DNA of 64,000 nucleotides. Source: Blastococcus litoris. GTDB taxonomy: Bacteria > Actinomycetota > Actinomycetes > Mycobacteriales > Geodermatophilaceae. The notes under the pieces were generated by a model. The model did no database searches, was not told the origin of the DNA, and saw nothing but the letters and a program-made list of their open reading frames with translations. The stretch spans positions 434,001 to 498,000 of the forward strand of contig NZ_QCZF01000001.1 in the NCBI RefSeq assembly GCF_003075095.1, in the 5' to 3' direction. A program made the translations under genes and the position numbers. Of the stretch, positions 2,635 to 7,414 are shown in pieces; positions within the stretch are counted from its first letter, which is position 1, and the number at the start of each line of letters is the position of its first letter.

Positions 2635-3495
2635 TCAGTCGGCGCCCTCGCGGCAGGTCTCGACGGCGAACGCCTCGATCCGCTGCCGCACGGCGGGGTC
2701 GGGCGTGAGCACGAAGGAGCGCGGCTCCTCGTCGCCGACCTCGACCACGAGCCCGATGAGGCCGGTCCGGTAGCTCTCGCCGAGCGCATGGACGTCGCAG
2801 CGGGCCGGGACCAGGCGCAGGTCACCGCTCACCGCGCCGTCCCCGTCGAGTTGGGGCAGCGGGCCGACCGGGCTGATGTCGTAGACGGTGTTCGGGTCGA
2901 CGCGGGTGAGGCGCACCGGATCGTCGCCGGCGAGCCTGCGGAGGCGCACGGTGGCCCGGAGTGCGGGGCCCTCGACCTCCCGCAGGTCCACCACCTCGAT
3001 CGCCACCTGGCGCAGCAGCGAGTCCGCGAAGCAGAGCCCGTCGTGCAGCCGCCGGACGAGGCCGTCGTCCTCGAGCGGCACCGTCGCCTGCCGCGCGGCC
3101 CCCGCCCCGTCGCGCAGGTGCACGACGGCCGCCGGGGGACCGGGGGCGACCGCGCAGTCGCCGGCCACCACCACGGGGAAGTCCAGGGCCGTCCCGGGCC
3201 GGAGTGCGGCACCGCGGGGGTCGCCCGGTCGGGCGGTCAGGCCCGGGGCCACCAGTTCCAGCCCGTCGACCGCCAGGTCCTCGGCCGACGCCGTGAGCCG
3301 TACCTCGACGCGTCCGCGGGCGACGTCGCGCCGGAACTGGAGGAGGACCCCGGTGACGTCGGCCGCGGCAGCCTCCGTCGTCGTCCCCGCGGCGGCCGGG
3401 CGCTCCGATGTCCGGTCCGGTGCCGTGCAGCCGGTGACGACGACGGCGAGGACCGCCGCCAGGACGGCGCGCGACGTGCGTCGGTGCCGGTCCAC
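2635..3495 (-). CDS. Putative secreted lipoprotein, 286 aa
   Basis: The N-terminus is a textbook lipoprotein signal: basic residues (DRHRRTSR), a hydrophobic run (AVLAAVLAVVV) and a lipobox ending in Cys23 (VVTGC), followed by a Pro/Thr-rich linker. The mature protein should be anchored outside the membrane. The rest is predicted beta-rich, with repeated FPVVVAGD, ATVRLRRLAG and IGLVVEVGD strands like an Ig or CARDB-like fold, and it has four further Cys that could form disulfides. I know no functional assignment. GTG 3495 is preceded by a GGGGAG ribosome site. The gene lies just downstream of the HAD gene's start, on the same strand. Confidence 0.75.
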   Translation of the reverse strand: MDRHRRTSRAVLAAVLAVVVTGCTAPDRTSERPAAAGTTTEAAAADVTGVLLQFRRDVARGRVEVRLTASAEDLAVDGLELVAPGLTARPGDPRGAALRPGTALDFPVVVAGDCAVAPGPPAAVVHLRDGAGAARQATVPLEDDGLVRRLHDGLCFADSLLRQVAIEVVDLREVEGPALRATVRLRRLAGDDPVRLTRVDPNTVYDISPVGPLPQLDGDGAVSGDLRLVPARCDVHALGESYRTGLIGLVVEVGDEEPRSFVLTPDPAVRQRIEAFAVETCREGAD

Positions 3496-3617
3496 GGCGT
3501 GCTCCCCGCCTCGTTCTCCCTGCGGCCGCCCGATCGTGCTGCGACCCGGCTGCGGCAGCAAGGGGGGAGTGACGCGCGACGCATCCGGCCGCGCGGGGGG
3601 TTCTCGGAGCCGATGGG

Positions 3618-3623
3618 TACGAT
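3618..3623 (+). promoter_or_regulatory. Probable -10 element of the riboswitch-thrC transcript
   Basis: TACGAT sits 14 bases before the first paired base of the SAM riboswitch (3637), which places transcription start near 3630. No convincing -35 is visible, as is common in actinobacteria. Confidence 0.5.
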
Positions 3624-3634
3624 CGGCGGCGTTC

Positions 3635-3765
3635 CACTCATCCAGAGGGGCAGAGGGACACGGCCCGACGAAGCCCCGGCAACCGCCGCCTGTGCGCATG
3701 CGCAGCGGAAGGTGCCAATTCCGTCCCGCACGGCTCGACGGCCCGCTGCGGGGAAGATGAGGAGG
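3635..3765 (+). promoter_or_regulatory. SAM riboswitch (S-box type) with the Shine-Dalgarno in its closing helix
   Basis: The leader carries the S-box core in order: CAGAGGGGCAGAGGGA at 3643-3658, then CGGCCCGACGAAGCCCCGGCAACC immediately after, given here as two parts (CGGCCCGACGAAG and CCCCGGCAACC), a variable stem, GGTGCCAATTCC at about 3711-3722, and a closing stem. The outer helix is CTCATC (3637-3642) with GATGAG (3756-3761). Its 3' strand runs directly into the GGAGG ribosome site (3761-3765) of the gene at 3776. S-adenosylmethionine binding should stabilise this helix and hide the ribosome site, which implies control of translation initiation. No run of U residues or separate terminator hairpin is seen. 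Confidence 0.85.
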
Positions 3766-3775
3766 TAGTCGTCGC

Positions 3776-5077
3776 ATGACGTTGACCGCACCCGGATCCG
3801 TCCAGGCCGATTCGTCCGCCGGTGGTCCGATCCCCCCGTGTCCCGCTCGCGGCCTCGTGTGCCGCAACTGCGGGGCGACCTTCGGCCTGATCGCCGAGCA
3901 CGCCTGCGCCGAGTGCTTCGGCCCGCTGGAGGTCGACTACGACCCCGAGCTGATGAAGGCCGTCACCCGCGAGCAGATCGAGGCCGGGCCGCAGAACATC
4001 TGGCGCTACGCCGGCCTGCTGCCCGTGGGCCAGGACCCGACCGAGCGGGTGTCGCTCGACCCGGGCCTCACGCCGCTGGTGCGCGCCGACCGGCTCGCCG
4101 CCGAGCTCGGCATCACCGGCGGGCTGTGGGTGAAGGACGACTCGGCCAACCCGACGCACTCCTTCAAGGACCGCGTCGTGTCCCTCGCGGCCACCGCCGC
4201 CAAGCGCCTGGGCTACACGAAGATCGCCGCCGCCTCCACCGGCAACCTGGCCAACTCCGTGGCCGCCCACGCCGCCCGCGTCGGCCTGCCGTCGTTCGTG
4301 TTCATCCCCAGCGACCTGGAGCCCGGCAAGGTCGTGCAGTCGGCTGTCTACGGCCAGACGCTGGTCGCCGTCGACGGCTCCTACGACGACGTCAACCGGC
4401 TGACCAGCGAGCTCGCCGAGACCGACGAGTTCGAGGACACCGCCTTCGTCAACCAGAACGTGCGGCCCTACTACGCCGAGGGCTCCAAGACGATGGGCTA
4501 CGAGATCGCCGAGCAGCTGGGCTGGCGCATCCCGGCCCAGGTCGTCATCCCGATGGCGTCGGGCTCGCTCCTGACCAAGGTGGACAAGGCCTTCCGCGAG
4601 CTCGCCGCCGCCGGGATCGTCGAGGCCACCGAGTGGACCGTCTTCGGCGCGCAGTCGGCCGGTTGCGACCCCATCGCGACGGCGTTCGAGAACGGCTGGG
4701 ACGTCGTCAAGCCGGTCAAGCCGACCGGCATCGCCAAGTCGCTCAACATCGGCAACCCGGCAGACGGCCCCTACGCGCTCGACGCGATCCGCCGCACCGG
4801 CGGCTCGGTCGGCCGGGTCGGCGACGACGAGATCGTGCAGGGCATCCGCGACCTCGCCCGCACGACCGGCGTCTTCGCCGAGACGGCGGGTGGCGTCACG
4901 GTGGCCGTGCTGCGCCGGCTGGTAGAGGACGGCCGCCTGGACCCGGCGAAGGAGACCGTCGTCCTCAACACCGGCGAGGGCCTGAAGACGCTCGACCCGC
5001 TCGAGCCCGTCGTCGGCCCCACCCACCGCGTCGACCCGTCGCTGACGTCGGTCCGGGCGGCCGGCCTCATCAGCTGA
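3776..5077 (+). CDS. thrC: Threonine synthase-like PLP enzyme with N-terminal zinc-ribbon-like region
   Basis: This 433-aa protein is a fold-type II PLP enzyme annotated across actinobacteria as threonine synthase (O-phosphohomoserine to threonine plus phosphate). Residues 29-47 have two CxxC pairs (C29/C32 and C44/C47), a rubredoxin or zinc-ribbon-like insert typical of the longer branch of the family. The PLP lysine is K131 in THSFKDR. The phosphate-binding glycine loop is MASGSLL, and ASTGNLANSVAAHA is the substrate loop. The ATG at 3776 follows GGAGG with good spacing. An upstream SAM riboswitch ties it to methionine supply, which is unexpected for a pure threonine gene. A role at the threonine/methionine branch point, or a relative such as cysteate synthase, should be kept open. 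Confidence 0.85.
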   Translation: MTLTAPGSVQADSSAGGPIPPCPARGLVCRNCGATFGLIAEHACAECFGPLEVDYDPELMKAVTREQIEAGPQNIWRYAGLLPVGQDPTERVSLDPGLTPLVRADRLAAELGITGGLWVKDDSANPTHSFKDRVVSLAATAAKRLGYTKIAAASTGNLANSVAAHAARVGLPSFVFIPSDLEPGKVVQSAVYGQTLVAVDGSYDDVNRLTSELAETDEFEDTAFVNQNVRPYYAEGSKTMGYEIAEQLGWRIPAQVVIPMASGSLLTKVDKAFRELAAAGIVEATEWTVFGAQSAGCDPIATAFENGWDVVKPVKPTGIAKSLNIGNPADGPYALDAIRRTGGSVGRVGDDEIVQGIRDLARTTGVFAETAGGVTVAVLRRLVEDGRLDPAKETVVLNTGEGLKTLDPLEPVVGPTHRVDPSLTSVRAAGLIS

Positions 5078-5287
5078 GGGCTAGGGTCGGTACCGCTCCC
5101 CGGATCGGGCGACGTCACGTCGTCACATCCGGGTATCGGTCCTGCGTGGATGTAGCGCCACCAGGCATTTCCTGATGTACGTTCTCGCGCGGTTCGAGTT
5201 CCACGTTCGTGTCCACGGGCGGAAGAGCTAGACCCGGCACCCCCGCTCAAGAGGGCGCCGTCCGCACGCACGAACGTGGGAGCACAC
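5078..5287 (+). other. Non-coding leader region upstream of the cold-shock gene
   Basis: This stretch has no credible coding frame. It holds the end of the thrC transcript and probably the promoter and a long 5' leader of the cold-shock gene. It is less GC-rich than its surroundings around 5160-5210. Long leaders are usual for cspA-type genes, where they act as RNA thermosensors, but I cannot define a fold by eye. Confidence 0.4.
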
Positions 5288-5488
5288 GTGGCACAGGGCA
5301 CCGTGAAGTGGTTCAACGCCGAGAAGGGCTTCGGCTTCATCGCCGTCGACGGCGGCCAGGACGTCTTCGTCCACTACTCGGCCATCCAGATGGACGGGTA
5401 CAAGAGCCTCGAAGAGGGCCAGCGGGTCAGCTTCGAGGTCGTCCAGGGCGCCAAGGGCCCCCAGGCGGACCAGGTCACCGCGGCCTGA
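5288..5488 (+). CDS. cspA: CspA-family cold-shock protein
   Basis: This is a 66-aa single cold-shock domain that binds single-stranded RNA/DNA and acts as an RNA chaperone in the cytoplasm. Both RNA-binding motifs are present: KGFGFI (RNP1) and DVFVHYSAI (RNP2). The opening [17 protein letters not shown] is the family consensus. I chose GTG 5288 because the protein then starts at the family position and has GGGAG 5 bases upstream. A GTG at 5276 would add four residues. It is followed by a strong hairpin terminator. The gene named cspA here is one of several likely paralogues; a second CSD protein with a tail lies at 33986. Confidence 0.93.

Positions 5489-5722: not shown

Positions 5723-7414
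<1,692 letters not shown>

What the first reader, a model, noticed from the sequence alone, without database searches (positions are those of the whole stretch)
3618..3776. SAM riboswitch whose closing helix abuts the Shine-Dalgarno of a threonine-synthase-like gene
The S-box core is easy to read, and the 3' strand of its outer helix (GATGAG, 3756-3761) shares its last G with the GGAGG ribosome site. That geometry predicts control of translation rather than transcription. The regulated gene is also surprising: S-box switches normally govern methionine and cysteine genes. Turning off a threonine synthase when SAM is plentiful would not be expected for simple threonine supply.
Basis: partly seen in the sequence, partly recalled or inferred. 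Interest (0 to 1): 0.72.

Follow-up and report, generated by a model that had tools for sequence, protein, structure and literature searches.

The report
SAM switch on a homocysteine-synthase gene
A well-known kind of RNA switch that senses S-adenosylmethionine sits right against the ribosome-binding site of a gene labelled threonine synthase, but the gene most likely belongs to a recently described methionine-making family, so the control makes ordinary sense.

Summary
The RNA element is real: a full-length SAM-I (S-box, RF00162) aptamer at 3635-3763, 75.7 bits against a cut-off of 44.4, the only RF00162 match in this genome. P1 (3637-3642/3756-3761) shares two bases with the AGGAGG ribosome site; 12 nt separate the hit from the ATG; no terminator was found. 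In the window's family the switch precedes the gene in 55 of 55 genomes that have the gene (57 searched); spacing is identical in the 38 measurable ones. Translational control is well supported but untested.

The surprise dissolves. The genome has a separate thrC between hom and thrB. The 3776-5077 gene groups with Streptomyces genes, apart from ThrC (100/100). MetM, reported as a homocysteine synthase in Streptomyces, has an upstream SAM riboswitch in S. albulus (passages); S. lividans tabulates the same pair as 'threonine biosynthesis'. SAM repression is then ordinary feedback.

Less ordinary: the sulfur-carrier gene, next to metM in 79 of 80 Streptomycetaceae loci, is absent beside metM in all 55 family genomes (three with short flanks), and this genome's other homocysteine route (metYX) carries a SAM-IV switch.

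The parts
3618..3623 (+). -10-like hexamer TACGAT; transcription start inferred near 3630, so the leader would begin only a few bases before P1
   Evidence: inference from sequence; a TA-N3-T hexamer stands at a similar place in the aligned family loci shown; not found by the sigma-70 consensus scan
3635..3763 (+). SAM-I (S-box, RF00162) riboswitch aptamer
   Evidence: 75.7 bits, full-length model match
3637..3642 (+). P1 helix, 5' strand CUCAUC
   Evidence: cmscan alignment, fold, covariation at model pairs 3 and 4 among 19 linked riboswitches
3647..3677 (+). P2 hairpin
   Evidence: cmscan alignment and minimum-energy fold
3678..3716 (+). P3 hairpin, with an insert relative to the consensus
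   Evidence: cmscan alignment and minimum-energy fold
3724..3753 (+). P4 hairpin
   Evidence: cmscan alignment and minimum-energy fold
3756..3761 (+). P1 helix, 3' strand GAUGAG; its last two bases belong to the ribosome site
3760..3765 (+). Shine-Dalgarno sequence AGGAGG, 10 nt before the ATG
   Evidence: sequence; GATGAGGAGGTAG present in 48 of 55 family loci, counted by eye
3776..5077 (+). metM-like gene (433 aa, PLP-dependent, N-terminal CxxC...CxxC zinc-ribbon-like segment), annotated by profiles as threonine synthase; predicted O-phosphohomoserine-dependent homocysteine synthase
   Evidence: ORF; Pfam PALP 231.5 bits; NCBIfam TIGR00260 thrC 241.8 bits, cut-off 167.1; clade with Streptomyces genes apart from ThrC
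5288..5488 (+). cold-shock protein gene directly downstream, where metO stands before it in Streptomyces
   Evidence: Pfam CSD on 5303-5485, 98.1 bits; gene order
5786..7414 (+). GroEL gene, conserved synteny marker (not part of the switch)
   Evidence: ORF, order metM-csp-groEL; name from reading the sequence

Best explanation
A SAM-I riboswitch in a leader of about 145 nt controls translation of a metM-type gene. When SAM is plentiful the aptamer folds and P1 closes; its 3' strand takes up the first two bases of AGGAGG and puts a rigid RNA against the ribosome site, so initiation falls. When SAM is scarce P1 opens more easily and the ribosome can bind. The enzyme, predicted to be a homocysteine synthase, turns O-phosphohomoserine (from ThrB) plus protein-bound or free sulfide into homocysteine, the methionine precursor, so the loop is ordinary end-product feedback. 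Shown here by computation: the aptamer, its position, its conservation and linkage, the separate thrC, the clade of the gene. Inferred: SAM binding, translational repression, the enzyme's activity and its sulfur donor.
For: Aptamer 75.7 bits. In the family, 55 of 55 genomes with the gene have the riboswitch just upstream, and all 38 whose alignment starts at residue 1 have exactly 12 nt between hit and start (from; 57 genomes searched). No terminator-like site in 3400-5400. In a phylum sample 33 of 56 genomes with the gene have RF00162 just upstream (from; 149 genomes searched). Separate thrC in the own genome between hom and thrB; a separate ThrC in 35 of 37 gene-bearing genomes among G000-G099, counted by eye. 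Gene tree splits 45 MetM-type from 30 ThrC rows at 100/100 and joins the window clade to Streptomyces at 100/97; 25 positions fixed differently in the two groups. Same order metM-(metO)-csp-groEL as Streptomyces. MetM in Streptomyces is reported as homocysteine synthase, with an upstream SAM riboswitch in S. albulus (passages of PMC12172450). metM-type and metX avoid each other: metX in 12 of 56 genomes with the gene against 42 of 93 without, Fisher p 0.0047, as expected for alternative routes. The own genome's other homocysteine route, metY-metX, is itself under a SAM-IV riboswitch.
Against: The curated NCBIfam model TIGR00260 calls the protein threonine synthase above its cut-off (241.8 against 167.1 bits) and the nearest solved structures are threonine synthases. 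A Microcystis homologue, about 52% identical to S. albulus MetM, showed threonine synthase and deaminase activity in vitro and did not behave fully as MetM in cells (passages). The S. albulus MetM sequence itself was not at hand; the link runs through named Streptomyces loci. The usual carrier gene metO is missing here. Folding shows P1 forming without ligand terms and hides only two ribosome-site bases, so no clear ON/OFF pair is predicted. 23 of 56 phylum genomes have the gene without a detected linked riboswitch, some on short contigs. The metX/metM avoidance is not corrected for phylogeny. SAM-IV or SAM-I next to metX is not general: of 11 other genomes with both genes, one (G111) had RF00162 hits near metX and none SAM-IV.
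Confidence: 0.82

Rival explanations
1. The gene is a true second threonine synthase and SAM represses threonine synthesis, a cross-pathway control that spares homoserine-derived carbon or balances isoleucine and methionine.
For: Profile name and score, nearest solved structures; a Microcystis homologue makes threonine in vitro (passages).
Against: A canonical thrC sits in hom-thrC-thrB in the same genome; 35 of 37 gene-bearing genomes examined have a separate ThrC; deep 100/100 split from ThrC with 25 fixed differences; carrier-protein gene next to it in 33 of 44 phylum loci examined outside the family; avoidance of metX.
Confidence: 0.1
2. The switch acts on transcription (attenuation), not on translation.
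For: Relatives elsewhere in the phylum have terminator-like hairpins between the same aptamer and the same gene: L036, L051 and L034; SAM-I switches of Firmicutes are classically transcriptional (established knowledge).
Against: No terminator-like site in 3400-5400 (0 found, shuffles 0.3); only 12 nt between aptamer and ATG, conserved in 38 of 38 measurable family members.
Confidence: 0.07
3. Family members keep metM but use no carrier protein: MetM takes free sulfide and the switch merely tunes a minor bypass beside MetXY.
For: No carrier gene beside metM in the family; MetX and MetY intact in the own genome.
Against: A CysO orthologue is present in 56 of 57 family genomes, so a carrier is available; the reported MetM partner in Streptomyces is a carrier protein (MetO; gene named passages, its role as donor recalled).
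Confidence: 0.35

Closest known systems
metM-metO locus of Streptomyces (S. albulus, Hasebe et al. 2024, cited in PMC12172450; paper itself not held)
   Same: SAM riboswitch upstream of the metM gene (passages); in the 80 named Streptomycetaceae loci the same order with csp and groEL downstream; RF00162 in 4 of 4 named loci scanned; protein 58.0-60.4% identical to 13 Streptomyces-clade members compared
   Different: metO is absent beside metM in the window's family; in Streptomyces the start lies 15-21 nt after GATGAG against 14 nt here, and GATGAG is followed by GAGAAAGGGC in 73 of 80, so the ribosome site overlaps P1 less clearly there
S. lividans TK24 RF00162 leader of SLIV_16930-SLIV_16925, 'Threonine biosynthesis' (PMC8079986, passages)
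   Same: Same riboswitch class before a gene pair filed under threonine biosynthesis, with a mapped transcription start
   Different: Two-gene unit there; here the second gene is missing. That SLIV_16930 is the orthologue was not checked by sequence
Translational SAM-I riboswitch of the Xanthomonas met operon (PMC7270179, abstract and passages)
   Same: SAM-I aptamer controlling mainly translation by hiding the Shine-Dalgarno
   Different: There a separate expression-platform hairpin hides the site and senses tRNA; here P1 itself abuts the site and there is no room for a further hairpin
SAM-IV riboswitch on metY-metX of the same genome (L019 9348-9464)
   Same: SAM feedback on a homocysteine-forming route, short leader (about 44 nt from aptamer to ATG)
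   Different: Different riboswitch family and the O-acetylhomoserine route

Membership tests
SAM-I riboswitch (RF00162) | Full-length covariance-model match above the curated score | tested here: met
   75.7 bits against 44.4, model 1-108
SAM-I riboswitch (RF00162) | P1 helix kept by compensatory change in relatives | tested here: met
   Model pair 4: 19 of 19 standard, five types; pair 3: 16 of 19, three types
SAM-I riboswitch (RF00162) | Selective SAM binding | not testable with these tools
   needs in-line probing or calorimetry
Translational riboswitch | Aptamer overlaps or abuts the ribosome site and no terminator lies between | tested here: met
   Overlap 3760-3761; 12 nt gap in 38 of 38 measurable relatives; no terminator-like site
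Translational riboswitch | Ligand-dependent change in ribosome-site accessibility | tested here: inconclusive
   Thermodynamic folding forms P1 without ligand terms and hides only part of the site
Threonine synthase ThrC | Curated equivalog profile above cut-off | tested here: met
   TIGR00260 241.8 against 167.1; but PRK08197 283.5 below its 303
Threonine synthase ThrC | Groups with the ThrC of hom-thrC-thrB clusters | tested here: not met
   100/100 split of 45 MetM-type and 30 ThrC rows; the own ThrC lies at L020 8380-9456
MetM (O-phosphohomoserine-dependent homocysteine synthase) | Groups with the Streptomyces metM gene | tested here: met
   Sister to Streptomyces clade, 100/97, with 10 of the 80 named loci in the tree; the S. 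albulus sequence itself was not compared
MetM (O-phosphohomoserine-dependent homocysteine synthase) | Carrier gene metO adjacent (usual, not known to be required) | tested here: not met
   0 of 55 family loci, three with under 800 bp of downstream flank
MetM (O-phosphohomoserine-dependent homocysteine synthase) | Makes homocysteine from O-phosphohomoserine | not testable with these tools
   needs enzyme assay

The most novel reading that the evidence does not exclude
In this whole family the dedicated carrier MetO was lost from between metM and csp, and MetM now draws its sulfur from CysO, so that one carrier serves both CysM (cysteine) and MetM (homocysteine), while each homocysteine route is throttled by its own class of SAM riboswitch (SAM-I on metM, SAM-IV on metYX). 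Support: no carrier beside metM in 55 of 55 family loci, three with short flanks; CysO in 56 of 57 genomes, and in 16 of 57 it is the only CysO-type carrier found at E 1e-6 or better, 15 of these with metM (counted by eye); family CysO groups with CysO of other genomes, not with metM-linked carriers (73/88, weak). A second carrier elsewhere in the genome (L022 7311-7589) falls on the metM-linked side of that tree (93/94) and may be a relocated MetO, but it was found in only 41 of 57 genomes.
Probability: 0.3. Interest if true: 0.5.

Novelty: new member of a known kind. Interest (0 to 1): 0.35.

Why it matters
It removes a false puzzle: database names make a SAM riboswitch appear to control threonine synthesis in many actinobacteria, whereas the controlled gene belongs to a methionine-branch family. 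The linkage (33 of 56 gene-bearing genomes of a phylum sample) is a ready argument for renaming a large set of 'threonine synthase' entries. It also gives a compact case, with P1 itself abutting the ribosome site, for testing translational SAM-I control, and it raises a testable question about which sulfur carrier feeds MetM where metO is gone.

Tried and rejected
Considered and rejected: a true threonine synthase under SAM control (separate thrC, deep tree split); transcription attenuation (no terminator, 12 nt to the ATG); a chance motif (E 5.7e-16 and 55 of 55 in the family); other SAM riboswitch families at this place. Tried with no or little result: thermodynamic folding gave no distinct ligand-free structure; the sigma-70 scan found no promoter; a first labelling of carrier neighbours was wrong because CysM cross-hits MetM, and was replaced by position-based labels; the family's name could not be obtained, so it is called 'the family' or f1 throughout (GC 0.74; Geodermatophilaceae is my guess and comes from no call); the search for SAM switches near metX in 11 other genomes with both genes found RF00162 in one (G111, two hits) and SAM-IV in none, so the double-switch arrangement is shown for this genome only.

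Literature seen: passages of PMC12172450, PMC12452182, PMC1262725 (in 2005 no conserved RNA element was reported for methionine or threonine operons of Actinobacteria), PMC8079986, PMC3766115, PMC12096830, PMC7270179, PMC6746716, PMC8269248, PMC11356490, PMC13257386; the other papers only as search listings. The key paper (Hasebe et al. 2024, doi 10.1128/aem.01247-24) is not held; what I say of MetO as sulfur donor is recalled beyond the cited passages. I found no held paper on a metM without metO or on a riboswitch in this family, within those ten searches only.

Full report
What is there. The stretch 3635-3763 is a complete SAM-I riboswitch aptamer (RF00162, 75.7 bits, gathering score 44.4, E 5.7e-16 for the window). 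It is the only Rfam match in the window at gathering scores and the only RF00162 match in the 4.63 Mb assembly. P1 consists of six pairs, 3637-3642 with 3756-3761; the two outer model pairs are non-standard. The ribosome site AGGAGG occupies 3760-3765, so P1 takes its first two bases; the ATG is at 3776. TACGAT at 3618-3623 looks like a -10 element, which would start the mRNA only a few bases before P1 (inference; the consensus scan found no promoter).

Conservation. In the window's own family (57 genomes searched) the downstream gene is found in 55 and RF00162 in 56. The riboswitch lies just upstream of the gene in 55 of the 55, and in the 38 whose alignment begins at residue 1 the gap from aptamer end to start is 12 nt every time; the other 17 begin later in the alignment and could not be measured in that way. 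GATGAGGAGGTAG is present in 48 of 55 loci; seven deeper members keep GATGAG but differ after it (by eye; a stricter script pattern matched 48 of 55 loci, 46 of them with GATGAGGAGGTA). Across the phylum (149 genomes) 56 have the gene and 33 of these have RF00162 directly upstream. In 19 linked examples with sequence at hand, own included, P1 covaries.

How it probably acts. No terminator-like structure lies in 3400-5400, and 12 nt leave no room for one. This fits translational control by P1 closing against the ribosome site. The step from SAM binding to reduced initiation is inferred. Folding gives only partial help: P1 forms with probability 0.93-0.98 without any ligand term, hides 3760-3761, and leaves 3763 unpaired, while 3764-3765 pair with coding sequence with or without P1 enforced. 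Elsewhere in the phylum the same aptamer-gene pair has terminator-like hairpins in between (L036, L051, L034), so the expression platform has changed between lineages.

What the gene is. The profile name is threonine synthase (TIGR00260, 241.8 bits, cut-off 167.1; PRK08197 283.5, below its 303), and solved relatives are threonine synthases. Yet the genome has an ordinary thrC between hom and thrB (L020 8380-9456), 35.3% identical to the window protein. Among the phylum genomes G000-G099, 35 of 37 with the window-type gene also have a separate ThrC (by eye; G058 and G097 had none at E 1e-60). A tree of 45 window-type proteins (own, 29 phylum, 5 of 29 other held family loci, 10 of 80 named Streptomycetaceae) and 30 ThrC proteins splits at 100/100, and the window clade is sister to Streptomyces at 100/97. 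Twenty-five positions are fixed differently in the two groups.

Link to MetM. PMC12172450 (passages) reports that Hasebe et al. 2024 identified a homocysteine synthase, MetM, in Streptomyces, that metM of S. albulus has an upstream SAM riboswitch, and names metO, a sulfur-carrier-family gene. The original paper is not held. PMC8079986 lists an RF00162 leader before SLIV_16930-SLIV_16925, 'threonine biosynthesis', in S. lividans. RF00162 was found in 4 of 4 of these that I scanned (9 of the 12 loci given to that call had it, the three without being L043, L250 and L253). The window has metM-csp-groEL, the same locus without metO. I therefore read the gene as metM; the S. albulus sequence itself was not compared.

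Pathway context. metX (NF001209, E 1e-40 or better) occurs in 12 of 56 phylum genomes with metM against 42 of 93 without (Fisher p 0.0047, no correction for relatedness), and all 12 are genomes with a linked riboswitch (12 of 33 against 0 of 23 without one). The window's genome is one of the 12: it has metY-metX, and that pair is preceded by a SAM-IV riboswitch (L019 9348-9464, 86 bits). Both routes to homocysteine thus appear to be under SAM feedback by different riboswitch families. This is not general: of the 11 other genomes with both genes, one had RF00162 near metX and none had SAM-IV.

The missing carrier. A CysO-type carrier gene follows metM in 33 of 44 examined phylum loci outside the family (24 of 29, 9 of 15; some misses have short flanks) but in 0 of 55 family loci (three with less than 800 bp downstream). 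The family has a CysO orthologue in 56 of 57 genomes, in the own genome beside cysM and a gene I read as mec (L021; the name mec is recalled). In 16 of 57 it is the only CysO-type carrier found at E 1e-6 or better; more distant ThiS/MoaD proteins exist, as in the own genome. A second carrier (L022 7311-7589) was found in 41 of 57 and falls near metM-linked carriers in a weakly supported tree. Sharing of CysO between CysM and MetM, a relocated MetO, or use of free sulfide all remain open.

Verdict. The surprising part, threonine synthase under SAM control, is most likely a naming artefact. Riboswitch and gene pair are already on record for Streptomyces, so this is a new member of a known kind, with a carrier-less variant as the point worth following.

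Noticed in passing
L019 9348-9464 (-), own genome contig C3: SAM-IV riboswitch (86 bits) upstream of metY-metX, the genome's other homocysteine route.
   Followed up: partly
window 5077-5288: metO, which stands here in Streptomyces, is missing in all 55 family loci examined, three of them with short flanks.
   Followed up: yes
L022 7311-7589 (+): A second CysO-like carrier, next to a repeat-protein gene I call BNR-like from memory, falls near metM-linked carriers in a small tree; found in 41 of 57 family genomes.
   Followed up: partly
L036 1427-1452, L051 2781-2753, L034 1419-1439: Terminator-like hairpins between the same aptamer and metM in other lineages: the expression platform differs within the phylum.
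   Followed up: partly
phylum sample: metX co-occurs with metM only where metM has a linked riboswitch: 12 of 33 against 0 of 23; could be a phylogenetic effect.
   Followed up: no
L250-L253, L043, L049, L053: One family-level group (f13 for those shown there) has metM without a linked RF00162 hit and without an adjacent carrier gene.
   Followed up: no
L269 3446-3569 and 6156-6278 (-): Two RF00162 riboswitches near metX in genome G111, which has four RF00162 hits in all, one of them on metM.
   Followed up: no
window 2635 to about 3500 (-): Divergent ORF upstream of the riboswitch looks like a lipoprotein by its TGC lipobox (my reading); no Pfam match.
   Followed up: no
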